A DNA stretch of 64,000 bases, taken from positions 496,001-560,000 of the forward strand of contig JAFKFH010000005.1 in NCBI GenBank assembly GCA_017307375.1, given 5' to 3'. Of the stretch, positions 1 through 51,907 are shown one piece after another. A program made the translations under genes and the position numbers. Source of the stretch: Alphaproteobacteria bacterium (GTDB lineage: Bacteria; Pseudomonadota; Alphaproteobacteria; Ferrovibrionales; Ferrovibrionaceae). The notes beneath the pieces were generated by a model. That model ran no database searches, had not been told where the DNA came from, and saw only the letters and a program-made list of their open reading frames with translations. Within the stretch, counting starts at the first letter, position 1; each line of letters starts with the position of its first letter.

Positions 1-1621
1 CGGCATCGCCATGGGCCATGACGGCATGCTCTACAGCCTGCCGTCGCGCGAGATCATCGCCGACTCGGTCGAGTACATGGTGAATGCCCATTGCGCCGAC
101 GCGATGGTCTGCATCTCCAACTGCGACAAGATCACGCCGGGCATGCTGATGGCCGCGCTGCGGCTGAACATTCCCGCCGTGTTCGTCTCGGGCGGCCCGA
201 TGGAGGCCGGCAAGGTCAAGCTGCACGGCAAGGAATTGTCGCTCGATCTGGTCGACGCCATGGTCGCGGCGGCCGACGACACGGTCTCGGACGAAGATAC
301 CGCGGTCATCGAGCGCTCGGCTTGCCCGACCTGCGGCTCGTGCTCGGGCATGTTCACCGCAAACTCGATGAACTGCCTGACCGAGGCGCTGGGCCTGTCG
401 CTACCGGGCAATGGCACGATCGTCGCAACCCATGCCGACCGCAAGAACCTGTTCCTCGAGGCCGGGCGCCTGTCGGTCGAACTGGCGAAACGCTATTACG
501 AAGGGGACGACGCCTCGGTCCTGCCGCGCTCCATCGCCTCCTTCAAGGCATTCGAGAACGCGATCACGCTCGACATCGCGATGGGTGGGTCCACCAACAC
601 CGTGCTGCACCTGCTGGCCGCCGCCCACGAGGCGGAGGTCGATTTCACGATGCACGACATCGACCGGCTGTCGCGTCGGGTGCCGGTGCTGTGCAAGGTC
701 GCCCCGGCGGTCTCGACCGTGCATATCGAAGACGTCCACCGCGCCGGCGGCATCCTCGCGATTCTCGGCGAACTCGACCGCGCCGGGCTGCTGAACCGCG
801 ACGTCCATTCGGTTCATGCCGCCAGCCTGACCGAGGCACTCGACCGCTGGGACGTCAAGCGCAGCCAGGCCGAGGACGTCGTCACGCTGTTCCGCGCCTC
901 GCCCGGCGGCATCCCGACCCAGGTCGCCTTCAGCCAGCAGCGCCGTTATGACAGCCTCGACCTCGATCGCGAAAAGGGCGTGATCCGCGATGCCGCCCAT
1001 GCCTTCTCCAAGGACGGCGGCCTTGCGGTGCTCTACGGCAACATTGCCGAACGCGGCTGCATCGTGAAGACCGCGGGCGTCGACGAGAGCATCCTGAAGT
1101 TCTCGGGTCCTGCCCGCGTCTATGAAAGCCAGGATGCCGCGGTCGCGGGCATCCTCGGCAACGAGGTGAAGGCCGGCGATGTCGTGGTGATCCGCTACGA
1201 AGGACCGCGCGGCGGGCCGGGCATGCAGGAAATGCTCTACCCCACCAGCTATCTGAAGTCGAAGGGGCTGGGCAAAGCCTGCGCCCTGATCACCGACGGG
1301 CGCTTCTCCGGCGGAACGTCCGGCCTGTCGATCGGCCATGTCTCGCCGGAAGCGGCCGAAGGCGGGCTGATCGCGCTGGTGCAGGATGGCGACACGGTCG
1401 AGATCGACATCCCGAACCGCAAGATCAATCTGGCGGTGGAACCGGAGGAACTGACCCGGCGCATGGTCGCCGAGGACAAGAAGGGGGCATCTGGCTGGAT
1501 GCCGGCGACGGCACGCCAGCGCAAGGTTTCGCCGGCCCTGCAAGCCTATGCGCTGATGGCCACCTCGGCCGACAAGGGCGCCGTGCGCGACGTCAGCCAG
1601 GTCGTGCGCAAGCCGCGCTGA
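1..1621 (+). CDS. ilvD: Dihydroxy-acid dehydratase, 5'-truncated by the window
   Basis: This enzyme dehydrates 2,3-dihydroxy-3-methyl acids to 2-oxo acids in valine, isoleucine and leucine synthesis, in the cytoplasm. The reading frame is open from base 2, and the first visible residues ([17 protein letters not shown]) are internal to the family, so the start lies upstream; about 540 of the usual ~610 residues are present. The Fe-S cluster and metal site motifs are visible: NCDKITPGM early, then [11 protein letters not shown] and NSMNCL. The C-terminal half has [11 protein letters not shown] and the conserved GRFSGGTSG active-site loop. The stop is TGA at 1619-1621. A strong hairpin follows directly, and the next gene is convergent, so this gene is not part of the secretion locus. 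Identification is from conserved motifs and is very secure. Confidence 0.97.
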
Positions 1622-1631
1622 CCACAAGCCG

Positions 1632-1655
1632 GGCGGGGGCGCGTGCGCCCCCGCC
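1632..1655. terminator. Bidirectional hairpin between ilvD and the convergent membrane-protein gene
   Basis: A perfect 11-bp inverted repeat (GGCGGGGGCGC at 1632-1642 and GCGCCCCCGCC at 1645-1655) has a two-base loop. It sits in the 51-bp gap between the ilvD stop and the stop of the convergent gene at 1673. There is no long T run, which is common in GC-rich genomes, so termination is inferred from position and stem strength. Confidence 0.65.
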
Positions 1656-1672
1656 TTGCGACATCCCGCCGC

Positions 1673-3142
1673 CTACTGGCCGGTCGTGCCGGCGATACGG
1701 CGCAATCTCGACAACTGTTCGTAAAGTCGTGGCGCCACGTCGCCGACCGGTGCGGCCTCGGCCGCCGAGGGCGGCGGCGGCGGTGCCGGCCGCGCCGGCG
1801 GCACGCCATAGGAGGGAGCGCCGAACGGACCCGAAGGCGCGGCCGGCGCCGCGGGCGGCGGGCTGACCGGCGGTGGCACCGGAGCCGCCGCGGGCGCCGC
1901 AGACGCCGGCGGCGGAGCGCTCGGCGCGCTGAGCCAATCGAAATTCGACGCCGGCTTGGCCCTCGGCTTGGGCGGCGGGGGTGGCGGCGGTATGGGCGGG
2001 GCGGCCGCCACTGCAGGCGCAGTTGCCGGGGGCGGGGTAAGCGGCGGGGGCGTCACCGGCGGTGGCGTGGCCGCGGCAAAGGTTGGCGGCGGGACGGAGC
2101 CGCCCCCCGGGGCCGACGAAGCAGGCGCCGGATCGGCAAAGAAGGGATCGCTTGTCGGCGAGACCGCGGCGGCAGCGGCGAACAGGTCATCCCCGAACGG
2201 GTCATAGCGGCCGCCGGCCGGCGCGGCCGCCGGACGCACGGGCGGCGGCTCGACGCGTCCGGCCGGCGTCGCATCATCGAACACCGGATCGAACGACGGA
2301 GCCACCGGCGGCGGCTCGTTGGCCTCCGCGGCAGGCGGCGCGGCGGACTTTTCGGGCGCAGTCTTGGCGGGATCGTCCTGCTTCTTGAGCAGCGCCTCGA
2401 ACGGATCGCGCGCCTTGTCGCGGCGGATGATCGGCTGGGCCAGCGGCGGAATGTCGAAATCGATATCCTGGGCCGCGGGCCGCACCGGCGGCTTCGGCGC
2501 CGCGCTCGCCTTGGGTTCGGGACTGATCCTGGGTTCGGGGGCGGGAGGCGGTTCGGCAGCGGGTTCCGGCCGCAAAGCGGCCGCGGCAGCGGCCGGCTCC
2601 ATCGGCGGCGCCGGTTCGAAAACGGCCGGCGCGACCTCGTTTGCCGGTTCGAGCGCGGGTGCCATGCCCGGCGGGCGCCAGTCGCCGACATCGCGGCGAT
2701 AGGTGACGGCAACCCGGCGCGACAGCACCACGTAAGGCAGCAGAATCCCGAGCAGGCAGGCCGTCACCTGGAACAGCCCCGGGCTGCGCGCCGAAAGCCC
2801 CATCTCGACCACGGCGATCGAATAGCCGGCCAGCAGCAGGGTCGCCGCGGTCAGGCCGGAGAACAGCCAGGGAAACAGCGCCGAGCGGGCCAGCGCGCAG
2901 TACCCGGTGACGTAGGCAAGGATCGCCAGCGCGACCTCGCCATGCAGCATCAGGCGGGTTTCACGCGGCAGGTCGGGCCGCAGCAGGTCCCAGGACATCA
3001 CGGTATCGACAAAGAACGCCACCAGCATCGCGACCAGCCCGGCAATCACGAGCAGCATGCCGCCGCCCAGGCCGTAGGCCGGGTGCTGACGGGCAATGCG
3101 GCGCGGAACGATCGGTCCGGCGATGACTTCGTCTTGGCTCAC
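1673..3142 (-). CDS. Membrane protein with four N-terminal helices and a long Pro/Ala-rich tail
   Basis: The function is not recognised. The 489-residue product has about four hydrophobic segments in its first ~165 residues (roughly 25-48, 68-90, 93-115 and 122-142), then a positively charged boundary (SRRVAVTYRRD). The remaining ~320 residues are proline- and alanine-rich low complexity with many short PPP and PPPP runs, ending in a short charged helix (LYEQLSRLRRIAG). The GTG/ATG start region overlaps the stop of the upstream gene by four bases (3139-3142), so translation is probably coupled. It is the last of four minus-strand genes divergent from the type VI operon. The opposite strand is also open here but encodes an arginine-rich shadow. 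A role in envelope scaffolding with the SPOR protein is only inferred. Confidence 0.75.
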   Translation of the reverse strand: MSQDEVIAGPIVPRRIARQHPAYGLGGGMLLVIAGLVAMLVAFFVDTVMSWDLLRPDLPRETRLMLHGEVALAILAYVTGYCALARSALFPWLFSGLTAATLLLAGYSIAVVEMGLSARSPGLFQVTACLLGILLPYVVLSRRVAVTYRRDVGDWRPPGMAPALEPANEVAPAVFEPAPPMEPAAAAAALRPEPAAEPPPAPEPRISPEPKASAAPKPPVRPAAQDIDFDIPPLAQPIIRRDKARDPFEALLKKQDDPAKTAPEKSAAPPAAEANEPPPVAPSFDPVFDDATPAGRVEPPPVRPAAAPAGGRYDPFGDDLFAAAAAVSPTSDPFFADPAPASSAPGGGSVPPPTFAAATPPPVTPPPLTPPPATAPAVAAAPPIPPPPPPPKPRAKPASNFDWLSAPSAPPPASAAPAAAPVPPPVSPPPAAPAAPSGPFGAPSYGVPPARPAPPPPPSAAEAAPVGDVAPRLYEQLSRLRRIAGTTGQ

Positions 3143-3738
3143 GGCTGCGCCTTGATCGTGATGCTACAGGCGACGGGTGCGCCGCTCGACTGAGCCTGGG
3201 TGCGGCAGGCCTCGATCGCGGAGCCGTTCTCCTCCATCAGCTTCCAGCCCGCATAGACCTGCGCAAAGCTGCGCGGGTCGCTGCGGGAAAGCATTTCGTT
3301 GCCGACCGCCCAGGAATCGGCGGGGCCGAGGATCGCCATCGCGATCGCGGTCTTCATCGTGTCGGGCAGGCGCGGCACCAGCGCCATGACCAGCACCGGG
3401 ACCAGGATCAGCACGAAGCCCCAGCCGACGAAGTGCCAGCGTGCCAGCGAGCGCGTGGCCGCCAGTTCCTCGACGCTGTCGGTGAGTTCGCGGGCAGCCT
3501 TGACCAGCACCTGCGTGGTTTCATTGAGCCGAAGGACGTCGCGGCCCTCGACCGATGGCGGCGGTCCGGGCAACGGCACCGGCACGGCCTCCTCGGGCGC
3601 CCGCCGGGGCGGGGCGGCAACAACCAGCCGATGAACCTCGGCCCCCCGTCGCCGCGGCGCGTCGTCGGCCACCGTCCCGTCGGCGAAGATCTTGTCAGCT
3701 CGGACGCCCTCGCGCCCCGTCTCGACTGCCGTCTCCAT
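3139..3738 (-). CDS. Single-pass membrane protein of unknown function
   Basis: The 199-residue product is not a family I recognise. The N-terminal ~90 residues are Pro- and Arg-rich and probably cytoplasmic. A short helical segment (residues ~70-95, with LVKAARELTDSVEEL) precedes one transmembrane helix at about residues 107-125 (FVGWGFVLILVPVLVMALV). A ~70-residue C-terminal domain with two cysteines follows, one near the NGSAIEACRTQ segment and one in PVACSITI; these could form a disulphide if exported. A good ribosome-binding site (GGAGG, about 9 bases upstream) supports the ATG at 3736-3738. It lies 14 bases after the upstream coiled-coil gene and overlaps the downstream gene by four bases. 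Confidence 0.75.
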   Translation of the reverse strand: METAVETGREGVRADKIFADGTVADDAPRRRGAEVHRLVVAAPPRRAPEEAVPVPLPGPPPSVEGRDVLRLNETTQVLVKAARELTDSVEELAATRSLARWHFVGWGFVLILVPVLVMALVPRLPDTMKTAIAMAILGPADSWAVGNEMLSRSDPRSFAQVYAGWKLMEENGSAIEACRTQAQSSGAPVACSITIKAQP

Positions 3739-3752
3739 GGTCCGGACCTCCG

Positions 3753-4196
3753 TCAGCTTGGGTGCTGCCCGCCCTTCATCAGAGCCGCTATGGTTTCGTT
3801 GACCTTAAGCCGGGCGAGGTTCTGCGTCACCACCTCGTCTTGCACCTGGCCCAATTCGCGGCGGAACCGGCCGATTTCGCCCTGGATCCGTTCGCCCCGC
3901 TCGGCCAGTTCCTGCCGCATGACGGCCAGCGTCTCGACCAGGGTCGACATCCGTGCCTCCGCCCGCCGGCTTTCCTCTGCGAACTGGGCGGCAACCCGGC
4001 CTGCCAGCGCTTCGCGCTCGGCCCGGGCGACCGCCTCGTTGGCAGCCACCGCATCGATGCGCCGATCCAGAGCCGTCTGCCGGATCAGGATGACGACGAG
4101 CATGACGAGCACAGCGAGTACGAGGACGCCGATCCCGACCAGGAGATGATCGCGGAACGGCCCGACCAGCATGACAAGGGGATCGCTGTTGTTCAT
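3753..4196 (-). CDS. Single-pass membrane protein with coiled coil
   Basis: This is a 147-residue protein of unknown function. One transmembrane helix lies at about residues 18-38 (LLVGIGVLVLAVLVMLVVIL), followed by an uninterrupted ~95-residue charged helix (residues ~42-135) with a coiled-coil pattern (repeats such as RAEREALAGRV and RQELAERGERIQGEIGRFR). It ends with a short non-helical tail. The start ATG at 4194-4196 overlaps the TGA of the SPOR gene by four bases, so the two are translationally coupled. A much longer in-frame opening extends upstream, but that part is only the shadow of the SPOR gene. The layout resembles small envelope-spanning scaffolds, but this is inference. Confidence 0.8.
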   Translation of the reverse strand: MNNSDPLVMLVGPFRDHLLVGIGVLVLAVLVMLVVILIRQTALDRRIDAVAANEAVARAEREALAGRVAAQFAEESRRAEARMSTLVETLAVMRQELAERGERIQGEIGRFRRELGQVQDEVVTQNLARLKVNETIAALMKGGQHPS

Positions 4197-5167
4197 TTTG
4201 CGGCCTTCGGGGCGGCGGCTGGGGCGGCAGCGGCAGACGCGGCGGGCGCTGCGGCGGCAGCGGCAGCAGCGGCTGGTACCGCCGGTGCCACGGGCGTCGG
4301 GGGCACGGGCGTCGGTGGCACGGGCGGCTTGGTGGACGCTTCGCGCACGACGATCGGATCGTAGCCGCGGATGCTGCCGAGGCTCGCGGCCGCGGTCTCG
4401 GCATCGCGCAGCGAGGTGAACGGGCCGAGCCGCACGCGATAGGTCGGCTGCAAGCCCCAGGGGACGGTCACCACATAGGGCGGCGCGGCCGCGCCGGCAA
4501 AGCTCGCCGCCAGCGCGTCGGCGGCCTCCTTGGTCGGCAGGGCGGCAATGTCCACCGCATAAAGGGGCGCGGCCGCCGGCATGCCCATGCCGGGCAGTGT
4601 CGCCGTCGGTCCCGGCGTGCCCGGCTGCTGCAGCGGATAACCGGTCGGACCACCGGCAACGGTCGGGTCGGCGCGGAACAGGTCGCCGATGCGGGCAGGC
4701 AGCGGCAAGGCGGCATAGAGCGAGGCTGCAGGTGTCGGTGCGGCGGCGCCACCGGCGGCGGCCGGAGCGGCACCCGCGGCAGCAGCCGGTGCCGCCGGCG
4801 CCGCGCCGGAAGCGGGAGCAGCGGCGGCTGCAGCCGCGCCGGCCGGGGCGGCTGCCGCAGGGGCAGCGCCGTTCGGCGCAGCGGCGGCGCCGCCCGCCCC
4901 GCCGGCCGCCGCGGTCACGGCCGGGGTCGCTGCGGCGACGACGGGCTGGGCGGCGCCGGGAATCGCGCCCTTCGCCGCCGCCTCGGCAGCGGTCTCGGCC
5001 TTTGTTGCCGCGGCGGCGACGGCCGGCGGCGTGCCCTGATGCCCGGCAGGCGCGGCGGCAGTCGCGACGGATGGCGCACCGCCGGCCAGATAGCCGGCGA
5101 TGAACGACAGCGCGGCCAGGAAGAACACCCCGACGATCACCGCGATGAGCTGCCAACGGCTGAGCAT
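4193..5167 (-). CDS. SPOR-domain membrane protein
   Basis: SPOR domains bind denuded glycan strands of septal or remodelled peptidoglycan. The 324-residue product has a short cytoplasmic N-terminus and one transmembrane helix (about residues 6-27, IAVIVGVFFLAALSFIAGYL). A ~130-residue Ala/Pro linker follows, then a SPOR-like fold at about residues 200-276, with the typical LYAVDIAAL start, a TYRVRLGPF strand and alternating helix pattern. An Ala-rich tail of about 48 residues follows the domain; this is unusual because SPOR domains normally end the protein. The ATG at 5165-5167 has AAGGGG six bases upstream, so an in-frame upstream ATG is disfavoured. It is the first gene of the four-gene minus operon. 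TssL in this locus has no peptidoglycan-binding domain, so a wall-anchoring role is possible but unproven. Confidence 0.85.
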   Translation of the reverse strand: MLSRWQLIAVIVGVFFLAALSFIAGYLAGGAPSVATAAAPAGHQGTPPAVAAAATKAETAAEAAAKGAIPGAAQPVVAAATPAVTAAAGGAGGAAAAPNGAAPAAAAPAGAAAAAAAPASGAAPAAPAAAAGAAPAAAGGAAAPTPAASLYAALPLPARIGDLFRADPTVAGGPTGYPLQQPGTPGPTATLPGMGMPAAAPLYAVDIAALPTKEAADALAASFAGAAAPPYVVTVPWGLQPTYRVRLGPFTSLRDAETAAASLGSIRGYDPIVVREASTKPPVPPTPVPPTPVAPAVPAAAAAAAAAPAASAAAAPAAAPKAAK

Positions 5168-5452
5168 GCCAAGCCCCTTGGAAGTCCGGTCAAACGCCGA
5201 CGGATACCCGCCGTCGGCCCTTATCGGATAGCACAACAGGGCCGGCGGCGAGAGTAAAGATCGCAACGGCGCGCGTGACTCCGATCACCATTGACGTAAT
5301 CTAATCTAAAACCGGTTGCCGGCATGACGCTGGCGATGATAGTCAAAGCTTCATCGGCACTTAATGCACATGTTCTAAGGTCGATGCGCGTTGATTACAG
5401 ATGGGGTCGAGGCCCGATCTGTAAGGGGGTAGTGGGGGGTGATCCGGTGGTA
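5168..5452. promoter_or_regulatory. Divergent intergenic region between the SPOR operon and the T6SS operon
   Basis: This 285-bp gap must hold promoters for both divergent operons. It is AT-richer than its surroundings. It contains TTGACG at 5291-5296 followed directly by a TAATC direct repeat (5297-5306), and a TTGATTACAG element at 5391-5400. No convincing -10 box or sigma-54 signature (GG-N10-GC) was found by eye. I therefore mark the region and not an exact promoter. Confidence 0.4.
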
Positions 5453-5971
5453 ATGCTGCGTCAGCAGTCGAGACCTGATCCTGATAGCAGGCGGTCGATT
5501 TCGGGCCGCTCCGCCACCCGTCGCCTATTGCTGCTTTCCCTACCGCTGCTGGTGGGCGGCTGCGGGATGATGCCCAAGATGTCGCCTGACGCCAATGTCT
5601 CGACGGTGACCCTGAGCGCCTCGCCCGACGCCAATGACGGCTTCCCGGTGCCGGTCGACATCGTCGTGGTCCGGACCGACGGCCTGGTCGGTACGGTCGG
5701 TGCGCTTGCCGCCCGCGACTGGTTCGCCAAGCGTGACCAGATGCGCAAGGACGCGGCCGACCGCATGTCGGTCTGGTCGTTCGAGATCGTTGCCGGCCGC
5801 ACCCAGGCCCCGTTCTCGATCAGCCGGTCCGACCGCTGGGATGCCAAGGGCATCTTCGTATTCGCCAACTATATCGCCCCGGGCGACCATCGCCTGCGCA
5901 TCGACACGCTCGATCGCGCCGACGTGGTGCTCGGCCCCCGCGATCTTTCGGCCGCCCCGTCGGCCAAGTAG
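5453..5971 (+). CDS. tssJ: T6SS outer-membrane lipoprotein, TssJ-like
   Basis: TssJ anchors the T6SS membrane complex to the outer membrane and binds the periplasmic end of TssM. The 172-residue product has a basic N-region, a hydrophobic core (LLLLSLPLLVGG) and a lipobox cysteine at residue 37 (LVGGC), so it is exported as a lipoprotein. The mature part has the layout of the TssJ beta sandwich: a strand with SPDANDGFPVPVDIVVV, then an aromatic-rich LAARDWFAKRD helix and a final GDHRLRID strand. The match is divergent and the identity leans on its position directly before tssK. An in-frame ATG exists at 5324, but the ATG at 5453 follows a GGTGG element and gives a normal signal-peptide length. 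Confidence 0.7.
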   Translation: MLRQQSRPDPDSRRSISGRSATRRLLLLSLPLLVGGCGMMPKMSPDANVSTVTLSASPDANDGFPVPVDIVVVRTDGLVGTVGALAARDWFAKRDQMRKDAADRMSVWSFEIVAGRTQAPFSISRSDRWDAKGIFVFANYIAPGDHRLRIDTLDRADVVLGPRDLSAAPSAK

Positions 5972-5989: not shown

Positions 5990-7384
5990 TTGGCCACCGA
6001 TCCGACATCCGCCGCCACCCGCTGGGTTCTGCCCGATCCGGTGCTCTGGCACGACGGCATGCTGCTCCTGCCGCAGCATTTCCAGCAGCAGGCGCTGCGC
6101 CAGGAAGGCCTGATCGACTACCGCATGCGCCGGATGCACCCGTTCTCGTACGGTATCGTCCAGCTCGCGGTCGACCAGAGCGCCCTGCTGGGCGGGCTGT
6201 TTCGCGTCCAGCAGCTCGAAGCGGTGATGCCTGACGGCATGCCGATCCGCTATGTCGCCGGCGAAGGCGACAGCGACCTGACCCTGGACCTGTCGCCCTA
6301 TGCCGAAACCATGCGGCGCGACCCGTTGCGCATCTATGCCGCGGTGCCGAGCCACGAGGACATCAACCTGCAGGGCGGCGACCCGGATGCCCGGCGCTAC
6401 CGGTCCAACGACGGCGAGCCGGTGCTAGACATCGTCACCGGCGAGGGGCGGGAGCGGATCCCGCGGCTGATCCCCAACCTGCGGCTGGTCGCGGCGCGCC
6501 AGCCTTCGGCCAAGCTGGTCACCTTGCCGCTGGCCGAGGTGAGCCTGCGCGACGAGAATGTCGAGCTGACGAGCTACGTGCCGCCGATGATGCTGCTGTC
6601 GGCGCGCTTCGCCCTGTGGCGCGAGCTGACCCTGCTGGGCCGGCGCCTGCGCGAGAAGATTTCCTTCATCAGCGAGCGGATCGACGCCGCCGGCACGCGC
6701 GAGGGCGAGCAGGTGCTCTATCGCCTGACACTGTCGGCCATGTCGACCTTCCTGCCCCAGCTCGAGACCCAGCTGCTGGCCGAGGCGACGCCGCCCTACG
6801 ACGTCTACCAGACCCTGGCCGCGATCATCGGCGCAGTCTCGCCGATCGGCCGCAACCGGGTGCCTCCCACCCTGCGCGGCTATCACCACGAGGAGCCGCG
6901 CGCGGCCTTCGACGAGGCGGTGCGGCTGATCTCGACCGCGCTGGACGAAATCCAGGAAGACTATCTGTCGATCCCCTTCGTGCCGACCGCCCAGGGCTTC
7001 TCGCTGCGGCTGCGCCGCGAATGGATGACGCGCAACCTGATCCTGCGCGCCCGCATTCCGCCGGGCGGGCGCGAGGAGGACACGGTATCCTGGATCAATT
7101 CGTCGGTCATCGCCTCCAACCGCATGATCGGCTCGCTGCGCGAGCGCCGCGTGCTGGGCGCCGCCCGCATCAAGGTCGGCCCCGAACACGGCCTGGACCT
7201 GCCGGTCGGGCCGCGCACGCTGCTGTTTGCCGTGCGCAACGATGCCGAACTGATCGTCGAGGACGAAGAACTCGTCGTCGCGAACTTCCTCGACCGCCAG
7301 CAATCCTCGCGGCCGGCGGAGTTGATCCTGCATGTCAAGCAAGGCTCGGGAGACGCCCATGCCGCCCGCGGAGCGACGCGCTGA
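5990..7384 (+). CDS. tssK: T6SS baseplate subunit TssK
   Basis: TssK is the cytoplasmic baseplate component that links the TssE/F/G wedge to the TssL/M membrane complex. The 464-residue product starts with the family hallmark: VLWHDGMLLLPQHFQQQ near residue 18-33, where family members read W..GMLL.PQHFQ. Length is normal (about 440-460). Translation begins at a TTG codon (5990-5992), preceded by GGCAGGAG; the frame has no upstream alternative because the TssJ gene ends 18 bases before. It overlaps the start of tssL by 26 bases, in line with translational coupling. Confidence 0.95.
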   Translation: MATDPTSAATRWVLPDPVLWHDGMLLLPQHFQQQALRQEGLIDYRMRRMHPFSYGIVQLAVDQSALLGGLFRVQQLEAVMPDGMPIRYVAGEGDSDLTLDLSPYAETMRRDPLRIYAAVPSHEDINLQGGDPDARRYRSNDGEPVLDIVTGEGRERIPRLIPNLRLVAARQPSAKLVTLPLAEVSLRDENVELTSYVPPMMLLSARFALWRELTLLGRRLREKISFISERIDAAGTREGEQVLYRLTLSAMSTFLPQLETQLLAEATPPYDVYQTLAAIIGAVSPIGRNRVPPTLRGYHHEEPRAAFDEAVRLISTALDEIQEDYLSIPFVPTAQGFSLRLRREWMTRNLILRARIPPGGREEDTVSWINSSVIASNRMIGSLRERRVLGAARIKVGPEHGLDLPVGPRTLLFAVRNDAELIVEDEELVVANFLDRQQSSRPAELILHVKQGSGDAHAARGATR

Positions 7385-8192
7385 ACCGACGGCCCCCGCG
7401 GTGAACCCGCCCGCGCGCCGGGGCCGCGCCGGAGGGGGCGGCGGACGACGGCAGGCGACGGAGAGTTTCGACTTCACCGACCGCTTCGCCGCGTTCTACC
7501 GCGACGTGCTGGTGGCGAAGGCGATGGCGGCGGAACCGCTGGCCGAGGTCAGCCAAGCCTATCGGCACAGCCGCTACAACGTGATCTTCTCGCACCTGAT
7601 CGCCGCACTCGAGGAGCGGATGGGCGAGATTTCCGAGTTCGGCGGCGAGTATGCCCGCCGGCTCTATGCCCGGTTCCTCTTCATCCTCGTCGCTTTCGCC
7701 GACGACGTGCTGCTGTCGATCCCCTGGTGGGGGCGCGAGCAATGGGTGTCGGCACCGCTGGAGGCGCACATCTTCGGCACGCGCGTGGCCGGCGACACCT
7801 TCTTCGACGACATCGACGGCGACCTGGCCGGCTACGGCATCGGCCGCGCCGAACTGGCGCGCGTCTACCTCGCGGCGCTCGCCCTCGGCTTCCAGGGCAA
7901 GTACCGCGGCCGCGATGCCGCCCCGCTGATGGACGACTATCGCCGCCGGCTCTACGGCATCGCCTACGGCGTGGCCGCCGAACGCGCGACCGCCGGCGAC
8001 CAACTGGTCGGCCAGGCGCTCGACCACACCCGCCGAGGCGGCGTGCCCCGGCGCCTGCCGTCGCTGAAGCCGTGGATTCTCGCCTGCCTCGGCGTGCTGC
8101 TGCTCTACATGGCGATCGGCCATGCGATCTGGATCTACGAGGTCGGCGATCTGCCCGACCGGGTGCAGGCCCTGCGCCTGCGGCTGAACTAG
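7359..8192 (+). CDS. tssL: T6SS inner-membrane protein TssL (DotU family)
   Basis: TssL is the tail-anchored inner-membrane partner of TssM and contacts TssK. The 277-residue product has a disordered Pro/Arg/Gly-rich N-terminus (~35 residues), then the helical cytoplasmic DotU domain (residues ~40-220) with RYNVIFSHLIAALEERM and the conserved FVAFADDVLLSIPWWG region. It ends with one C-terminal transmembrane helix (PWILACLGVLLLYMAIGHAIW). No OmpA or other peptidoglycan-binding extension follows, so this is the short form. The ATG at 7359 follows CGGGAG at good spacing; an upstream ATG at 7332 lies deeper in tssK and is less likely. Confidence 0.95.
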   Translation: MPPAERRAEPTAPAVNPPARRGRAGGGGGRRQATESFDFTDRFAAFYRDVLVAKAMAAEPLAEVSQAYRHSRYNVIFSHLIAALEERMGEISEFGGEYARRLYARFLFILVAFADDVLLSIPWWGREQWVSAPLEAHIFGTRVAGDTFFDDIDGDLAGYGIGRAELARVYLAALALGFQGKYRGRDAAPLMDDYRRRLYGIAYGVAAERATAGDQLVGQALDHTRRGGVPRRLPSLKPWILACLGVLLLYMAIGHAIWIYEVGDLPDRVQALRLRLN

Positions 8193-8205: not shown

Positions 8206-11200
8206 ATGACCGAACTTTCCGCCCTGCTGCAGCATTGGTCGCCATGGCCCGAGGTCGTGCTGGGCCTGCTTGCGGTCATCCTGCTGATCGCGATCGTCAT
8301 CGTGCTGGCCAGGGCGCGGCGTCCACTGCCCGGCGCCAAGGCCGAGCCGCCGAAACCGTCGAACAACGAACTGGTTCACCAGGCGCTGCGCCGTTCGTTC
8401 CGGGCCGCGCGCGAAACGCTGCGCGATCTCTACGGCGGCCGCGACTTCCGCTATGCCAGCCCGCTGGTCGCCGTGGTCGGCGCGCCGGATTCGGGCAAGT
8501 CGTCCCTCATCGCCGGGGCCGGGCTGACGCCGGTCACCGCCGGCGGCGACGGCCCGGCCGCGTTCTCGTTCTTTGCCGACGGCGCACTGCTCGATCTCCG
8601 CGGCGATCTCCTGGGCCTCGACCGGCCCGCCGGCCTCTACCGGCCGTGGGAAGAGGTGCTGTCGCAGCTCGACCTGCTGAAGCCGGAGCGGCCGCTGGAT
8701 GGCATCGTCCTGACGATCTCGGTCGCCGACCTGTCGGGCCCGACCAAGCTTCGCCCCGAGGCGCTGGCCGAACGCGGCGAGGTGTTCAACCGCCGCCTCG
8801 GCCGAATGCAGCGCCAGCTGGGCATGCAGCTGCCGATCTACATCGTGCTGACCCAGGCCGACCTGCTCGACGGGTTCACCGAGCTGGTGCAGTTGACGCG
8901 GACTGCCGATCCCGACGAGATCCTCGGCTGGTCGTCGCCCTATTCGTCCGACGCGGCCTTCACCCCCGACTGGGTCGCGGAAGGCATCGCCCAGCTGCAG
9001 ACCAATGCGCGCGAGGCCGCGATTGCCGGGCTCGCCACCGTGCCGAACGCCGAACGCTTCGGCCCGGCGGTGCTGCTGCCCGGCGGCATCGGGGAACTGG
9101 CCGAGCCACTCGGCATCTTGCTGGCGACGACGCTGCGCCAGTCTACCTTCAACGAACTGTCGATGCTGCGCGGCATCTACATGGTCGGCGGCTCCGGCAC
9201 CAGTGCGGCCGAGGGGGGCCAGGCCCCGGCGCGGCTGCCCGCGACGATCGAGGCGGAAGGCCCGGCCAGCCGGGGCGGCCGCCGCCCGGCAATCGCCTTC
9301 GCCCGCGATCTGATCGCTGAAAAGATTCTCGCCGAACGTGCGGTGGCCCAGCCGCAGGCACGCGGCCTGCTGATGCGCCGGCGGCGGCTCGTCATCGCCC
9401 AGGCCGCGGTCGTCTTGCTGATCGTCGCGGCCATGCTGGCCTTCGTCTACGTCGACCGGACGATCGCGCAACGCTCGTTCGAGGTGCACCGTCTGCTGCT
9501 GGCGATCGACGAGCAGGTCGAGCGCGAGAACCGCCCGGGCGAGCAGCGTGCGGCGATGCGGGCCTCGTCGGTCGATCTGATCCAGCAGTTGAACCAGGTG
9601 CCCAACGACGTGCTGTCGCTGTGGGTCCTGCCGTCGAGCTGGGCGACCACGGCGACGCGCAATATTGCCGGGCTGAAGATCGACGTCGTCCGCGGGCTTC
9701 TGTTCCGCAACCTGCACGACCAGCTGGCCGCCAAGCTGTCGACGCTGCCGGGCGATGCGCGCCGCCAGGTCGTGGCCGTCACCGGCGGCACGACCAACGG
9801 CGATTCGCTGATCACCAACTACCTCGCCCAGGTGAATTCGTACGAGCAGCTGATCAACCTCTACAACGGTCTCGGCCTGCCGGCGAGCCGACGCCCCGCC
9901 AACCAGCCGCCGCCGCGCGCCGCCCTGCACGAGATCGTCTCGCGGCTCGACGGCACCAACCTGCCCGATCGCTTCTTCGACATCGCCGCTCAGGCCGTGC
10001 GCGAATATCCCGGCCAGCTGCCGACGATCAACGTCGACCTCTACCGCAATGGCGCACGCGAAGGGCTGAACGCGATCTTCCGCGCCTATGTCGCCCAGCT
10101 GTCCGAACACAACAAGCTCGAGTACCTGGTGCCGCAGCTGATCACCACGCTCGACGAATCGGTCGACGTCGGCACCGCCGGTTATGTCGACCTCGTCCGC
10201 CTGCCGCGGCTGCAGGGCCTGCTCGACCAGATCGACGAGATCATCCGGACCGGAACCTATGACTGGGTGCTGCGCGACGATCTCGACCAGGATGCCGAAT
10301 GGCGCGGCTGGCTCGACGCGATCCGGGCGTCCACGCTGCTCGGCTCGGACCTCGCCGACCAGATCGAGGCGCAGGGGCTGTCGGCGCGCAGCGACTTCAT
10401 GGATACCGTGGTCGGCGCCCGGTCGGTGACGATGGGTCCGATCTTCACGACCTCGGGCAACTCGCTGGCACTCAGCCCGCAGTTGCAGGCGCTGCGCCAG
10501 ACGGTGGCGGCGGTGCCGACGGCCCAGGGCAACGACAATGCCGGGCAACCGCTGCTGACCCAGATGCGGCCGCTGCCGCGCAGCGTCGGCCCCGGATCCT
10601 ACGTGCAGTGGGATGCCGGCTGGCTCGGCCGCGCAGTGGCCGAGATCGCGAACTATCAGGGCGCGCTGGGGGCAACGGCCGCCGGCCGGTCGAATGTCGG
10701 CATCAAGGACCTGGTCGAGCGCGACCTCGACCAGCGCCTGGCGGTCTATCTCGGCCGCGCCATCGTCGTCAGGCCGATCCCCAACACGGCCAACGGTCTG
10801 GACGACGAGGTCTTCCTGCAGCAGCGCGTCGACAATTTCGTCAGCGTGATCCCGACGCTGAACTCGATCCTGCTGACCCTGCGCCAGATCGGCTCGAACC
10901 AGAACCGCGCGACCGTCGCACGGCTGGCCGCGGGCGAAGCCTACGGTATCCTCGACGCGTCGCGCCGGCTGGTCGATACCGCCCGCCCCTATCAGCCGCG
11001 CGGCGGCGACTTCTCATGGTGGGACGGCTCGGCCAAGGCGGCCTATGGCGCCTTCGGCGTGGCCACCGATGCCGATCTCAAGCTCTACCTGAAGTATCAG
11101 CGCGAGCGGATGGCCCATTGGGCCCGCGATTTCGCCAAGCCGGCATTGGACTTCCTGATGCAACAGAGCGTGGCGGGCGAGCCCGTCGGCCTCGACGCGC

Positions 11201-12291
11201 TCAACTTCTGGCGCCAGGTGCTGGACCAGCTCCAATCCTTCGACCAGCAGGATCAGTCCAGCGCGGTGCTGCAGCTCGAAACCTGGGTCACCGGCGTGCT
11301 GAACACCGCAACGATCGACGATTGCGGCACCCTGGCCCTCGGCAACATGCCGGCCCAGCCCGGCGGCTTCTTCCTGACCCGCCTGGCCGACCTGTCGCGC
11401 GCGGCGCAAAGCCGCTGCGACACGCTGGCGATGCAGCGGATCGACAAGAACTACGGCGATCTCGCCAACTACTTCAATTCGCGGCTCTCGGGCAGTTATC
11501 CGTTCGCCACCAGCCAGAACCGTCAGGCAGCGATCCCGGCGATCTTCCAGTTCCTCGACCGGTTCGACGCGTTCATGAATGCCGGCAACGGCGATCCGGC
11601 CCGCTGGACCGACCAGAGTGCCGCGGCACAGGCGGCGCTGAAGTTCCTGAACCAGATGGACGTGGTCGACGCCTTCTTCCGGGAATCGCGGGTCGCGATC
11701 GGCAAGCAGCCCTCGATCGCGATGTCGGTTACCGCCTCGTTCCGCGTCAATCGCGCCAAGGAGCGGGCCGCCGACGAGGTGGCGATGTGGTCGATCAAGA
11801 TCGGCGATACGACGCTGACCCAGTATGATCCGGAGAAGGCGATCACCTGGACACCCGGCCAGCCGATCTCCGTCGGGTTCCGCTGGGCGATCGATGCGCC
11901 GACGCGTCCCCGGGTCCGCACCGGCTCGCCACCCAATCTGTCGACCGACAACGGCGAGGCGCGCTACAGCTATACCGGGCCCTGGTCGATCTTCGGTCTG
12001 GTCGCCGACCACGCCGCGCCGGCCGCCGAAATCCCGATCGACGAGGTCCAGGACGGCTCGCGACTGCTGATGTTCGACGTGCCGCTGGTCGATTCCGACG
12101 AGAACGCCAAGACCGCGCGACTGTTCGTCCGCCTGACCTTCCGTGGTCCGAACGAACTGGGCGCACCGCTCCTGGAATTCCCCGACTTCCCCGTGGTGGC
12201 GCCGCCGGCACGTTCGCAACCCGCAGCCTCAGCCCAGCCGGCCGCCCCCGGCCGGCCGGTCCGCCCCCGTATCGGAGCCAACACCCAATGA
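8206..12291 (+). CDS. tssM: T6SS inner-membrane protein TssM (IcmF family)
   Basis: TssM spans the inner membrane and joins TssL to outer-membrane TssJ. The 1361-residue product has a hydrophobic segment at about residues 14-36, then a cytoplasmic NTPase-like domain with an intact Walker A motif at residues 92-99 (GAPDSGKS). A second transmembrane helix follows at about 396-416 (LVIAQAAVVLLIVAAMLAFV). The long periplasmic part (420-1361) includes IcmF-related and C-terminal beta domains and ends with an Ala/Pro-rich tail. Only one hydrophobic segment is evident before the NTPase domain, whereas well-studied TssM proteins have two. The gene overlaps tssA by four bases (ATGA at 12288). Confidence 0.95.
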   Translation: MTELSALLQHWSPWPEVVLGLLAVILLIAIVIVLARARRPLPGAKAEPPKPSNNELVHQALRRSFRAARETLRDLYGGRDFRYASPLVAVVGAPDSGKSSLIAGAGLTPVTAGGDGPAAFSFFADGALLDLRGDLLGLDRPAGLYRPWEEVLSQLDLLKPERPLDGIVLTISVADLSGPTKLRPEALAERGEVFNRRLGRMQRQLGMQLPIYIVLTQADLLDGFTELVQLTRTADPDEILGWSSPYSSDAAFTPDWVAEGIAQLQTNAREAAIAGLATVPNAERFGPAVLLPGGIGELAEPLGILLATTLRQSTFNELSMLRGIYMVGGSGTSAAEGGQAPARLPATIEAEGPASRGGRRPAIAFARDLIAEKILAERAVAQPQARGLLMRRRRLVIAQAAVVLLIVAAMLAFVYVDRTIAQRSFEVHRLLLAIDEQVERENRPGEQRAAMRASSVDLIQQLNQVPNDVLSLWVLPSSWATTATRNIAGLKIDVVRGLLFRNLHDQLAAKLSTLPGDARRQVVAVTGGTTNGDSLITNYLAQVNSYEQLINLYNGLGLPASRRPANQPPPRAALHEIVSRLDGTNLPDRFFDIAAQAVREYPGQLPTINVDLYRNGAREGLNAIFRAYVAQLSEHNKLEYLVPQLITTLDESVDVGTAGYVDLVRLPRLQGLLDQIDEIIRTGTYDWVLRDDLDQDAEWRGWLDAIRASTLLGSDLADQIEAQGLSARSDFMDTVVGARSVTMGPIFTTSGNSLALSPQLQALRQTVAAVPTAQGNDNAGQPLLTQMRPLPRSVGPGSYVQWDAGWLGRAVAEIANYQGALGATAAGRSNVGIKDLVERDLDQRLAVYLGRAIVVRPIPNTANGLDDEVFLQQRVDNFVSVIPTLNSILLTLRQIGSNQNRATVARLAAGEAYGILDASRRLVDTARPYQPRGGDFSWWDGSAKAAYGAFGVATDADLKLYLKYQRERMAHWARDFAKPALDFLMQQSVAGEPVGLDALNFWRQVLDQLQSFDQQDQSSAVLQLETWVTGVLNTATIDDCGTLALGNMPAQPGGFFLTRLADLSRAAQSRCDTLAMQRIDKNYGDLANYFNSRLSGSYPFATSQNRQAAIPAIFQFLDRFDAFMNAGNGDPARWTDQSAAAQAALKFLNQMDVVDAFFRESRVAIGKQPSIAMSVTASFRVNRAKERAADEVAMWSIKIGDTTLTQYDPEKAITWTPGQPISVGFRWAIDAPTRPRVRTGSPPNLSTDNGEARYSYTGPWSIFGLVADHAAPAAEIPIDEVQDGSRLLMFDVPLVDSDENAKTARLFVRLTFRGPNELGAPLLEFPDFPVVAPPARSQPAASAQPAAPGRPVRPRIGANTQ

Positions 12292-25609: not shown

Positions 25610-28309
25610 ATGCGTCTGGTCAAGCCGCTCCGCCTCGGCCTCGTCAAGCGCTCGCTGCTGTGGGGCGGACGTACGCTGCTGTCGTTCGGCCTGATCACCG
25701 CGTTTCCGCTGGCCAGCCCGCGCCGGATCATGAAGGAAGGCGAGATGTGGGAGGCCATCGCCCCCGCGCTCGGCGACCAGGTGCTCGACTCCGGCGAACC
25801 GAAGCGGCGCGGCGAGGTCGTGGTGTTCGGTCACTACTTCGCGCCCGGCGACAAGCCGGTGCTGCAGCATGGCGTGCGCGTCGCCCTGGGGCCGGTCGAC
25901 AAGTCGATCCGCGTCACCGGCCACCGCGAATGGGCAACCGATGAGCAGGGCCGCGTCGTCCCGACCTCGCCCGAGCCGTTCACCAGCCTGCCGATCGACT
26001 GGAAATATGCGTTCGGCGGACCGGGCTTTCCCGCCAACCCGGGCGGACGGGGCTACTGGCCGGAAGATACGCGCAGCGCCGATGCGCGCTACCCGCTGCC
26101 GTTGCTGGAATATCCGGCCGACGTATTGACCAGCCCCGACGCCGTGATCGCGCCGGCGGGGCTGGGCCCGCGCGATATCATGCTGCCTGCGCGCCAGCAA
26201 TATGCCGGCACCTACGACCGCTACTGGGCCGACAACCATGCGCCGGGCCTGGCGCAGGATGCGACGCTCGATCTGTTCCAGGTTGCCGCGACCGACCAGC
26301 AGTTCCAGGGCTTCATCGGCGGACGCGAGCCGTTCACCGTCGAGAACATGCACCCCGAGCAGCCGATCCAAAGCGGCCAATTGCCCGGCGTGCGCGCCCG
26401 GGCCTTCGTCCGCCGCACCGAAGCGCCCGAAAAGCTCGAGGAGTTGCCGCTCGCCACCGACAGCGCGATCCTGTTTCCCGGTATCGGCCTCGGCCTGCTG
26501 ATCCACCGCGGCAGTCTCTGGGTTTCGGCCTTCGATCATCCTGAGATCGACCTGTTCATGGCCGGATTCGAGTGGCAGGAACATGCGCCCCGGCCGCAGA
26601 GCTATTACGAGGCCGATCTCGTCCGCCGGCTCGACCCGGTCGAAGGCCTGCCGCTCGGCCTCGACTATCTCTCGCTCAGCCCGGAAGGCTGGGTCGAACC
26701 GCCGTCGGAAAAGGCGACGTGGTTCAAGGTGATGCAGCCGCGTTCGTTCGTCGTGCCGCCATCGCTGCAGGCCAAGATCGACGAAGGCAAGGCCATGCTG
26801 GCCAAGATGATCCCGCCCGACAAGGTCGAGGCCTTCGCCAAGGCTCACGTCCCGAAGGATGACGGACCGACGCTTGCGGCTCTCCGGGCCGAGCTGGCCG
26901 CGTTCGACGCGTCCAAGCAGGCTGGGCTGAAGAACCCGCTGCTGGTCAAGCCGCAGATGGACCGCATCAAGGCGCTGACCCGTCAGGTCGTCGACGAACG
27001 TGTCGGCGCCACCGAGGATCGCATCCGTACCGTCATGGCCCGAAAGGGCATGGACTACGATGCGTTGAAGGCCGCCGCCGCCGCCAAGCCGGTAATGACG
27101 CCGCAGCAGGTGATGGCGCAATCCGATGCGGCGCTCGACCGCGCGGCCGCGGGCGCGCCGCCGGCAGCGCGCGAGAAGATCCTGGCGGCCAAGGTCGGCC
27201 AGCATGCCGGGCTGGTCACCCAGGCCATGAGCGATCTGGCCGCGCTGACGGCCAGGGGCAAGGCCGCGATCGGCCATGCGATGCCGGCGCCGCCGCCGGT
27301 GGCCCCGGCCGAGGCGGCACGGCGTGCGGCCGGCGCCCAGGCGCTGCTCGCTCAGGGCGGCGATGCGACCCGCGGCGAATTCGCGGGCCTCGACCTCTCC
27401 GGATTCAATTTTGCCGGTCGCGATCTCACCGAGGCCGACTTCGCCGCCAGCATCCTGGTGGGGGCCGACTTCTCGGGCGCGGACCTGACACGCGTGAACT
27501 TCGCCGGGGCGGACCTTACGGACGCGCGGATGACCGGGGCGAAACTGCAGGAAACCAACCTCGGCAAGACCCGGCTGGATCGCACGGATTTCGGCAATGC
27601 CGGGATCTTCAAGGCCACGTTCTCGGAGGCCGAGGGAAGCGACACCGTCTTTGCCGGCGCCGGGATCGAGGGGGTGACGGCGATAAAGCCGCGCCTGTTC
27701 AGGCCTTCGTTCATGGGCGCGAAGCTCAAGGAAGTGAACTTCCTCGACGCCGAACTCGACGAAGCCAACTTCGATCAGGCCAATCTGGAAAAGCTGGTGT
27801 TGCTGAACAGCCGGGCCGATCGTGCCAGCTTTCGCGGCGCCCTCCTGGTTCGGCCGACGATGGTCAAGAGCACGTTGCAGGGGGCCGATTTCTCCCGCGC
27901 CTCGATCGAGCGCCTGTCGACCGCGGGCGGCGTCGACCTGCGCGACAGCCGCTTCGACCACGCCCGCATGCCGGCCGCAAGCCTGATCGGAGTCGTGCTT
28001 ACCGGCACCAGCTGGACGGCGACGAACGCCGCCGGCGCCCTGTTCAACAATGCCGACCTGCGCATGGCCAATTTCCATTGCGCGTTGCTGCGCGGCGCCC
28101 TGCTGATGCGCGCCAATCTGGTCGAGGCACGGTTCGACGGTAGCGACTGTGCCGATGCCTCGTTCATTCGCGCAGACATGCGCTGGGCCTCGCTGCGGCA
28201 GACCAGCCTCTATGGCGCCGACCTCACCGATGCCCGCCTCGACGACGCCGTCATCGACGGCGGCATGATCGACAACACCCTGCTGGCCGGACGGAACTTC
28301 CCATCATGA
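25610..28309 (+). CDS. Cassette 1 DUF2169 adaptor with pentapeptide-repeat C-terminus (D1)
   Basis: DUF2169 proteins act as T6SS adaptors; in Agrobacterium tumefaciens one (Atu3641) is needed to load effector Tde2 on its VgrG. The 899-residue product has the DUF2169 domain at about residues 15-320, with EGEMWEAIAPALGD, PVLQHGVRVALGPVDKSIRV, AGTYDRYWADNHAPG and WVSAFDHPEIDLF. A helical, Ala-rich middle region follows (~380-580), then a pentapeptide-repeat beta helix from about 590 to the end (AxLxx units such as ADFSGADLTRVNFAGADLT). It shares this order with D2-D5. The stop overlaps the next gene by four bases. Cargo is not known; A1, B1 and C1 are the obvious candidates. Confidence 0.93.
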   Translation: MRLVKPLRLGLVKRSLLWGGRTLLSFGLITAFPLASPRRIMKEGEMWEAIAPALGDQVLDSGEPKRRGEVVVFGHYFAPGDKPVLQHGVRVALGPVDKSIRVTGHREWATDEQGRVVPTSPEPFTSLPIDWKYAFGGPGFPANPGGRGYWPEDTRSADARYPLPLLEYPADVLTSPDAVIAPAGLGPRDIMLPARQQYAGTYDRYWADNHAPGLAQDATLDLFQVAATDQQFQGFIGGREPFTVENMHPEQPIQSGQLPGVRARAFVRRTEAPEKLEELPLATDSAILFPGIGLGLLIHRGSLWVSAFDHPEIDLFMAGFEWQEHAPRPQSYYEADLVRRLDPVEGLPLGLDYLSLSPEGWVEPPSEKATWFKVMQPRSFVVPPSLQAKIDEGKAMLAKMIPPDKVEAFAKAHVPKDDGPTLAALRAELAAFDASKQAGLKNPLLVKPQMDRIKALTRQVVDERVGATEDRIRTVMARKGMDYDALKAAAAAKPVMTPQQVMAQSDAALDRAAAGAPPAAREKILAAKVGQHAGLVTQAMSDLAALTARGKAAIGHAMPAPPPVAPAEAARRAAGAQALLAQGGDATRGEFAGLDLSGFNFAGRDLTEADFAASILVGADFSGADLTRVNFAGADLTDARMTGAKLQETNLGKTRLDRTDFGNAGIFKATFSEAEGSDTVFAGAGIEGVTAIKPRLFRPSFMGAKLKEVNFLDAELDEANFDQANLEKLVLLNSRADRASFRGALLVRPTMVKSTLQGADFSRASIERLSTAGGVDLRDSRFDHARMPAASLIGVVLTGTSWTATNAAGALFNNADLRMANFHCALLRGALLMRANLVEARFDGSDCADASFIRADMRWASLRQTSLYGADLTDARLDDAVIDGGMIDNTLLAGRNFPS

Positions 28310-35735: not shown

Positions 35736-36158
35736 ATGGCCAAGAAGTACATGTACGCGAAGGGCGTCGACGGCATGACGTTCTACACCAAGTCGACGGC
35801 GACGCTCAGCTTCGGCGGGTCGGCCTCGGCCAATGTGGCCAAGCATGGCCTGACCATCGTGCCGGTCACCGGATCGGCCGATTTTCACGTTGCCGGCGTC
35901 AAGGCCTCGATCGGCTCGCCGCTGCTGGTCAGCATCGATTTCAGCAGCGGTCTCACCTGGAACCTGAAGAAGAACGAGGTCGAGACCACCGGCATCTATG
36001 CCGAGAAGAAGACGGCCAAGGTGGATACCGGCCTTGCCGAAACCCAGTCGGCGGTGACCGAGTTGGAGAAGACTGCGATCAAGACCGCCAACGGTGCGAT
36101 CAGGATGGCGACGCGCGCACTGACCCTGCGCAGCGCCAGCGCCGTTTCCAGCGAATAA
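35736..36158 (+). CDS. Cassette 3 small protein C3 (family C, unknown)
   Basis: This 140-residue protein carries the C signature GVDGMTFYTKSTATLSFGG, strand-rich sequence to about residue 85 (ADFHVAGVKASIGSPLLVSI), then GIYAEKKTAKVDTGLAETQ leading into the helical part. It ends with a possible strand (IRMATRALTLRSAS). The TAA stop shares one base with the D3 start (TAATG), so translation is coupled, unlike the seven-base gap in cassettes 1 and 2. Confidence 0.85.
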   Translation: MAKKYMYAKGVDGMTFYTKSTATLSFGGSASANVAKHGLTIVPVTGSADFHVAGVKASIGSPLLVSIDFSSGLTWNLKKNEVETTGIYAEKKTAKVDTGLAETQSAVTELEKTAIKTANGAIRMATRALTLRSASAVSSE

Positions 36159-50301: not shown

Positions 50302-50370
50302 GGCAAGGGGCCTCACGCTGATTGCGCGGGCACCCTGCGATGCCCCGGCCCGGGGGTCAAGCGGCGGCCG

Positions 50371-51906: not shown

Positions 51907-51907
51907 G

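What the first reader, a model, noticed from the sequence alone, without database searches (positions are those of the whole stretch)
1673..5452. Four divergent membrane proteins including a SPOR protein next to the T6SS
Four minus-strand genes, tightly coupled (two ATGA overlaps), encode a SPOR protein, a coiled-coil single-pass protein, another single-pass protein and a four-helix protein with a 320-residue Pro-rich tail. They share a divergent control region with tssJ. TssL lacks a peptidoglycan-binding domain, so the SPOR protein could anchor or position the T6SS at the cell wall or septum. They may also be an unrelated envelope module.
Basis: inference. Interest (0 to 1): 0.5.

Follow-up and report, generated by a model that had tools for sequence, protein, structure and literature searches.

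The report
SPOR cell-wall protein beside a T6SS
One of the four genes encodes a cell-wall-binding type of protein that also sits next to the same type VI secretion gene in a range of related bacteria, so it is probably part of how that weapon holds on to the cell wall; its three companions, one of which has its known relatives on conjugative plasmids, were not seen beside the other secretion systems examined.

Summary
The four minus-strand genes are real: A (SPOR, 4193-5167), B (3753-4196), C (3139-3738), D (1673-3142). Where tssJ lies beside tssK with readable DNA upstream, a SPOR gene precedes tssJ in 16 of 17 genome-contig loci (13 of them Azospirillum-like) and 16 of 24 loci of a class-wide sample. 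A further 35 of the 60 class-sample loci show no tssJ beside tssK and no SPOR gene. In this lineage TssL is short: 0 of 25 scanned carry OmpA, against 11 of 11 of another type; the window's contig has no OmpA domain. TssL-SPOR fusions are published (PMC3326028), so A is a stand-alone variant of a known kind of T6SS wall anchor. Its SPOR domain folds like RlpA's but has Asp where RlpA has a glycan-contacting Gln. B, C and D gave no hit at 140 other T6SS loci. C carries DUF6118, which in five of six plasmid records read lies downstream of the relaxase gene traA. What B, C and D do is open. No function was tested.

The parts
4193..5167 (-). Gene A: SPOR protein with one N-terminal hydrophobic segment (324 aa), proposed T6SS peptidoglycan anchor
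   Evidence: PF05036 43.6 bits, cut-off 21; hydropathy; AF2 model of the SPOR domain matches RlpA SPOR 6i05; SPOR gene next to tssJ in related loci
4343..4564 (-). SPOR domain of gene A
   Evidence: search of the own genome with PF05036, E 1.3e-11
3753..4196 (-). Gene B: one hydrophobic segment, then a charged, probably helical region (147 aa); ATGA overlap with A
   Evidence: no family over a cut-off, only weak PHROG matches
3139..3738 (-). Gene C: single-pass protein with DUF6118 (residues 71-198) and a Cys pair C178/C191
   Evidence: PF19613 E 7.5e-14, 52.2 bits, cut-off 27; alignment with six plasmid homologues
1673..3142 (-). Gene D: multi-helix membrane domain plus about 340-residue Pro/Ala-rich tail; GTG start, GTGA overlap with C
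   Evidence: DUF2569 only below its cut-off, 19.4 against 26.5 bits
5168..5452 (.). Divergent intergenic region between A and tssJ
   Evidence: no sigma-70-like site in 1600-5600
5453..5971 (+). tssJ (lipoprotein), start taken at the ATG before a lipobox (by eye)
   Evidence: no Pfam or NCBIfam match; homologous to the gene just before tssK in L028-L044, E 1e-17 to 4e-26, L031 8e-10
5990..7384 (+). tssK
   Evidence: PF05936 E 1.6e-45; TIGR03353 230.7 bits, cut-off 100
7332..8192 (+). tssL, short form without OmpA or SPOR
   Evidence: PF09850 only
8206..12291 (+). tssM
   Evidence: PF14331 E 2.5e-41; TIGR03348 below its cut-off

Best explanation
Gene A is the stand-alone peptidoglycan-binding accessory protein of this T6SS. 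It sits in the inner membrane by one N-terminal helix, crosses the periplasm with an Ala/Pro-rich linker and holds the glycan with its C-terminal SPOR domain, doing for the TssJLM complex what an OmpA extension of TssL or the TagL protein does elsewhere. Shown: the domain, its predicted fold, the recurring position next to tssJ, and the lack of OmpA in TssL and on the contig. Inferred: contact with TssJLM, binding to peptidoglycan, and the effect on assembly or placement. B, C and D are a local addition, probably cotranscribed with A (inferred from two 4-base overlaps and a 14-base gap); they may form a membrane complex with A, but their link to T6SS is weak.
For: On the same strand and within 2 kb upstream of tssJ, nearly always abutting it, a SPOR match was found in 16 of 17 genome-contig loci and 16 of 24 class-sample loci that have tssJ beside tssK and at least 400 bp upstream (distances are between matched stretches, -3 to 163 bp for the nearest). 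The class-sample 16 counts L188, weak in the profile (E 0.2) and below Pfam's cut-off; L184, missed by the profile, passes that cut-off (24.0 bits), so the Pfam-supported count is also 16 of 24. The 14 strong ones fall in 11 genera. 33 of 36 proteins of alignment A2 match PF05036 at E 0.001, two of the 36 being non-SPOR neighbours put in as controls; A2 covers 9 of the 16 genome-contig loci, the other 7 rest on the session's own profile. One further SPOR-like place appeared in the 2.27 Mb of the 140 loci, and it is a TssL with a C-terminal SPOR stretch (L106, 20.6 bits, cut-off 21). OmpA: 11 of 36 TssL, 0 of the 25 lineage members at E 0.01. No OmpA match on contig C3. AF2 model pLDDT 78.4, order beta-alpha-beta-beta-alpha-beta; best Foldseek hit RlpA SPOR 6i05, E 3.2e-5, TM 0.83 by target length. 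Published: 14 DotU/TssL proteins fused to SPOR (PMC3326028, passages); a SPOR-bearing secretin in the Legionella T2SS (PMC9239104, passages). The T6SS of A. brasilense Sp7 inhibits bacteria (PMC11837500, passages); that Sp7 itself has the SPOR genes was not checked.
Against: In 35 of the 60 class-sample loci no tssJ was recognised beside tssK and no SPOR place was found; 22 of these are among L140-L182, whose TssK is closest to the window's, though several are cut by contig ends. Of the 24 readable pairs, L141, L153, L162, L165, L176, L182 and L196 have no recognised SPOR gene and L188 only a weak one; the TssLs of L141, L153, L162 and L182 also lack OmpA, so neither anchor type is seen there. 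L031, the one genome contigs exception, also has a TssL in the OmpA-free set. In the window the gene runs opposite to tssJ, unlike the other loci where it was found. The residue matching RlpA Q270 is Asp here. Twelve of the 16 genome-contig loci are named Azospirillum, so they are not independent. No binding or secretion data.
Confidence: 0.6

Rival explanations
1. A is a T6SS accessory, but its SPOR domain no longer reads denuded glycan. With Asp or Glu in place of the Gln it acts as a protein-protein module, for instance holding TssJ, or binds another form of peptidoglycan.
For: RlpA Q270 contacts NAM and NAG and is highly conserved among SPOR domains of known structure (PMC6895207, passages). 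It aligns with Glu in the T6SS profile, Asp in the window, Glu in the Azospirillum, bin21, BRH_c57, L148 and L168 proteins and in one of the two L147 proteins (read by eye). Four of the five other SPOR domains of this genome have Gln there (by eye).
Against: R309 and R311 of the RlpA basic patch have Arg counterparts in the window (RVRLGP in both). Ten other T6SS-linked SPOR proteins keep Gln (L029, L140, L142, L143, L145, L146, L149, L154, L157, L167).
Confidence: 0.2
2. The four genes are an unrelated envelope module (cell division or envelope maintenance) that happens to lie beside the T6SS.
For: Known SPOR proteins act in cell division or morphogenesis (PMC6895207, passages). B, C and D have no hit at other T6SS loci. 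A is transcribed away from tssJ. Many loci of the lineage lack the SPOR gene.
Against: The position of a SPOR gene next to tssJ recurs in 11 genera of the class sample, including genomes of 1-2 Mb, with one other SPOR-like place in 2.27 Mb.
Confidence: 0.15
3. Split origin, compatible with the best explanation for A: A belongs to the T6SS, while B, C and D are a separate module, C at least derived from a conjugative element, that joined A's operon without a T6SS role.
For: In five of six plasmid records read, the DUF6118 gene follows traA at once or after two genes; a published table lists it next to TraA (PMC10413263, passage). DUF6118 is in 6 of 385 class genomes, the window included, 5 over the cut-off.
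Against: Four-base overlaps A/B and C/D and a 14-base gap B/C suggest one coupled unit.
Confidence: 0.45

Closest known systems
TssL-SPOR fusions (DotU proteins with a C-terminal SPOR domain, PMC3326028, passages)
   Same: a SPOR domain supplied to the TssL-containing membrane complex
   Different: here the SPOR domain is on a separate protein encoded beside tssJ
TagL (SciZ) of enteroaggregative E. coli
   Same: T6SS-encoded accessory with a C-terminal periplasmic peptidoglycan-binding domain, used where TssL has none
   Different: TagL has three TM segments and an OmpA/Pal/MotB domain (PMC8253398, passages); A has one hydrophobic segment and SPOR
FtsN, DedD, DamX (divisome SPOR proteins)
   Same: N-terminal TM segment, linker, C-terminal SPOR (their architecture recalled, not tested)
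   Different: genomic context is T6SS; Gln of the glycan site replaced by Asp
DUF6118 proteins near TraA on MOBQ plasmids (for gene C)
   Same: membrane segment and C-terminal domain; W143, G146, P155, N171, C178, C191 among the 14 positions invariant in seven sequences
   Different: the N-terminal 70 residues are outside the Pfam match; no relaxase nearby; beside a T6SS on a large contig

Membership tests
SPOR domain (PF05036) | sequence match over the curated cut-off | tested here: met
   43.6 bits, cut-off 21
SPOR domain (PF05036) | RNP-like beta-alpha-beta-beta-alpha-beta fold | tested here: met
   AF2 model; Foldseek hits to RlpA, CwlC and DedD
SPOR domain (PF05036) | glycan-contacting Gln in strand 1 (highly conserved, not universal) | tested here: not met
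   Asp in the window
SPOR domain (PF05036) | binding to denuded glycan | not testable with these tools
   needs a binding assay
TagL-type T6SS peptidoglycan anchor | encoded at a T6SS cluster whose TssL has no peptidoglycan-binding domain | tested here: met
   window TssL is DotU only; position next to tssJ with parallels
TagL-type T6SS peptidoglycan anchor | OmpA/Pal/MotB domain (PF00691) | tested here: not met
   only PF05036 in A; no OmpA match on contig C3
TagL-type T6SS peptidoglycan anchor | three TM segments with a cytoplasmic domain | tested here: not met
   one hydrophobic segment
TagL-type T6SS peptidoglycan anchor | contact with TssL and need in secretion | not testable with these tools
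   needs interaction and deletion tests
DUF6118 (PF19613), gene C | sequence match over the curated cut-off | tested here: met
   52.2 bits, cut-off 27, profile 117-243 of 245
DUF6118 (PF19613), gene C | linkage to a relaxase gene (seen in plasmid members read here; not part of the Pfam definition) | tested here: not met
   window neighbours are B, D, a dihydroxy-acid-dehydratase-like ORF (by eye) and T6SS genes; plasmid members

The most novel reading that the evidence does not exclude
Alphaproteobacterial T6SSs carry their own SPOR branch, split off from divisome SPOR proteins, in which the glycan-reading Gln turned acidic in some lineages so that the protein clamps the TssJLM complex or intact wall at chosen sites rather than binding denuded septal glycan; in this genome that protein gained a partner taken from the gene set around a conjugative plasmid's relaxase (DUF6118), making a hybrid T6SS membrane module.
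Probability: 0.15. Interest if true: 0.7.

Novelty: new variant of a known kind. Interest (0 to 1): 0.5.

Why it matters
How a T6SS membrane complex attaches to the wall is worked out for OmpA-type anchors. The review and the structure paper whose passages I saw name TagL, TagP, TagN and TagW and mention no SPOR domain (PMC10433429, PMC8253398). A recurring SPOR gene next to tssJ would give part of an alphaproteobacterial T6SS lineage, small-genome members included, a candidate anchor that can be deleted and tested. If its SPOR domain reads denuded glycan, it would tie T6SS placement to wall remodelling or division.

Tried and rejected
Quartet as a conserved T6SS unit: rejected; with the four proteins and two domain pieces as phmmer queries, only A's SPOR piece had hits at E 0.01 in 140 other T6SS loci (80 loci and the 60; some hold little DNA upstream of tssK, and the two sets may share organisms). 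B: one weak match of 41 residues in 60 other genomes, inside a 600-residue frame of another kind; no plasmid hit. D: weak matches in 2 of 288 other genomes, in surroundings that look unrelated; no plasmid hit. A on plasmids: no hit. Genome-contig scan with C: 232 pattern matches, none confirmed. C as single query: 3 of 384 other class genomes at E 0.001. AF2 of C alone: pLDDT 56, not used. Promoter scan: no sigma-70-like site; two terminator-like sites against 1.6 expected. PHROGs: only weak matches. Another OmpA anchor: no match on contig C3. An SLT-type lytic transglycosylase beside tssJ, as in Azospirillum: no match on contig C3. Only two of the 18 family genomes have TssK, the window's and G005's, and G005's is of the other type.

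Rows dropped. Of the 70 match rows one is the window; 59 were fetched and 10 left out (weakest, partial or second places). Of the 60 fetched loci (59 plus G005), 25 have tssJ beside tssK and 24 of these at least 400 bp upstream (L174 dropped). In alignment A2 the SPOR genes of L037-L043 were left out as near copies. Of six long ORFs of 897-970 residues between 25 and 52 kb, four were scanned with Pfam and two (30878, 40237) were not.

Papers: seen as passages only: PMC3326028, PMC12494544 (the term was in its reference list), PMC9239104, PMC10433429, PMC8253398, PMC11837500, PMC8163844, PMC11909080, PMC6895207, PMC10413263, PMC13375697 (the term was in references); all others as search listings.
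Full report
What is there. The window's first 1.6 kb hold an ORF that looks like dihydroxy-acid dehydratase (by eye, not scanned). Then come four minus-strand genes, and from about 5.45 kb a plus-strand T6SS cluster: tssJ, tssK, tssL, tssM, tssA, tssB, tssC, hcp, tssE, tssF, tssG, a clpV-like AAA protein and vgrG (tssJ by homology). The four genes are A 4193-5167, B 3753-4196, C 3139-3738 and D 1673-3142. A and B overlap by ATGA, C and D by GTGA, and B and C lie 14 bases apart.

Gene A. Pfam finds one SPOR domain at residues 202-275 (E 3.9e-11); the genome has six SPOR places including this one. The domain modelled with 13 relatives gives pLDDT 78.4 and the order beta-alpha-beta-beta-alpha-beta. 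Foldseek's best solved match is the RlpA SPOR domain 6i05 (E 3.2e-5).

Is it tied to T6SS? A scan of genome contigs with TssK kept the best 80 of 169 loci. In 17 of them tssJ was recognised beside tssK with at least 400 bp upstream, and in 16 of these a SPOR match precedes tssJ on the same strand, the nearest stretch -3 to 163 bp away. Thirteen of the 16 carry a second SPOR gene about 1 kb further up. The exception, L031, is an Acidobacteriales MAG. The 16 are 12 named Azospirillum, one Roseomonas-named record and three MAGs, so they count as few independent cases. I fetched 59 of the 69 places other than the window, plus one from the family search. Of 24 readable tssJ-tssK pairs, 16 have a SPOR match by the profile, L188 only weakly. 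By Pfam's cut-off L188 drops out and L184 comes in, so the count is again 16. The 14 strong cases fall in 11 genera, and several genomes are 1-2 Mb. At the thresholds only one further SPOR-like place appeared in the 140 loci, 2.27 Mb. It lies in Thalassomonas L106 in the tssL position and reads as DotU plus a SPOR stretch (20.6 bits against a cut-off of 21).

Limits of that link. In 35 of the 60 class-sample loci no tssJ was recognised beside tssK, and no SPOR place was found in them. Twenty-two of these are among L140-L182, with TssK closest to the window's; some are cut by contig ends. Among the 24 readable pairs, seven have no recognised SPOR gene: L141, L153, L162, L165, L176, L182 and L196. 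So the SPOR gene is common but not universal in the lineage.

TssL. In alignment A1, 11 of 36 TssL carry OmpA. Rescanning the 25 lineage members alone gives DotU in all and neither OmpA nor SPOR, so the 11 are the remaining, longer ones, of another T6SS type with more distant TssK. The window's contig has no OmpA match. The TssLs of L141, L153, L162 and L182 are in the OmpA-free set although no SPOR gene was seen beside their tssJ; those of L165 and L176 were not scanned; L196 is of the long-TssL type.

The binding site. In RlpA, Q270 with R302, R309 and R311 make the polar contacts to the glycan, and Q270 is highly conserved (PMC6895207, passages). The HMMER alignment sets Q270 against Glu in the T6SS profile. 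In the window it is Asp; Azospirillum, bin21, BRH_c57 and a few others have Glu; ten others keep Gln (read by eye). R309 and R311 have Arg counterparts in the window, R302 does not by eye. So peptidoglycan binding is likely but not secured.

Genes B, C and D. phmmer against all frames of the 140 loci found only hits of A's SPOR piece at E 0.01. C matches DUF6118. In plasmids 59 records match C. I read six: in five the DUF6118 gene follows traA at once or after two genes, and the sixth record (L021) begins with it. A published plasmid table also lists DUF6118 beside TraA (PMC10413263, passage). DUF6118 is in 1 of 143 relatives, this genome itself, and in 6 of 385 class genomes, this one included, 5 of them over the cut-off. 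Its membrane segment and C-terminal domain, with a conserved Cys pair, are what C shares. By the positive-inside rule (recalled, not computed) B's helical part and D's tail would be cytoplasmic and C's Cys pair periplasmic.

Literature. SPOR fused to TssL was reported for 14 proteins in 2012 (PMC3326028, passages). A review and a structure paper on T6SS anchors name TagL, TagP, TagN and TagW and mention no SPOR domain (PMC10433429, PMC8253398, passages). Searches for SPOR with T6SS terms showed, in the listings and passages I saw, no paper on a stand-alone SPOR gene beside tssJ; these cover open-licence papers only. The 2010 paper on T6SS anchoring to peptidoglycan by Aschtgen and others and the Azospirillum T6SS paper by Cassan and others, known from reference lists, are not held and may bear on this.

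Verdict. The SPOR gene is probably a T6SS accessory of a known kind in a new form. The quartet is not a conserved unit in what was searched. The best reading is a TagL-like role for A, with B-D a local addition of unknown purpose.

Noticed in passing
L106:11362-12663: Thalassomonas ORF right after tssK reads as DotU plus a SPOR stretch just under the Pfam cut-off: a TssL-SPOR fusion.
   Followed up: partly
L028:50-1024, L141:8331-8879, L153:6740-7348: A helix-turn-helix (HTH_23) protein lies upstream of the SPOR gene (L028) or directly before tssJ where no SPOR gene was found (L141, L153).
   Followed up: partly
L140, L146, L149, L151, L157, L167, L168: Genomes of 1-2 Mb carry a tssJ homologue next to a SPOR gene and upstream of tssK; a review of Holosporales says TssJ seems to be missing there (PMC11909080, passage). 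The taxa are unnamed here, so whether they are Holosporales is not known.
   Followed up: no
window 25610-28309, 36158-38863, 44161-47073: Repeated DUF2169 plus pentapeptide-repeat proteins of about 900 residues downstream of vgrG; similar-sized ORFs at 30878 and 40237 were not scanned.
   Followed up: partly
window 49150-51969: 939-residue ORF with no Pfam family at E 0.001.
   Followed up: no
L035:7101-7904 and like ORFs in L030, L032-L034 and L036-L043: A lytic-transglycosylase gene (SLT domain by Pfam in L035; the others by similarity) precedes the two SPOR genes and tssJ.
   Followed up: partly
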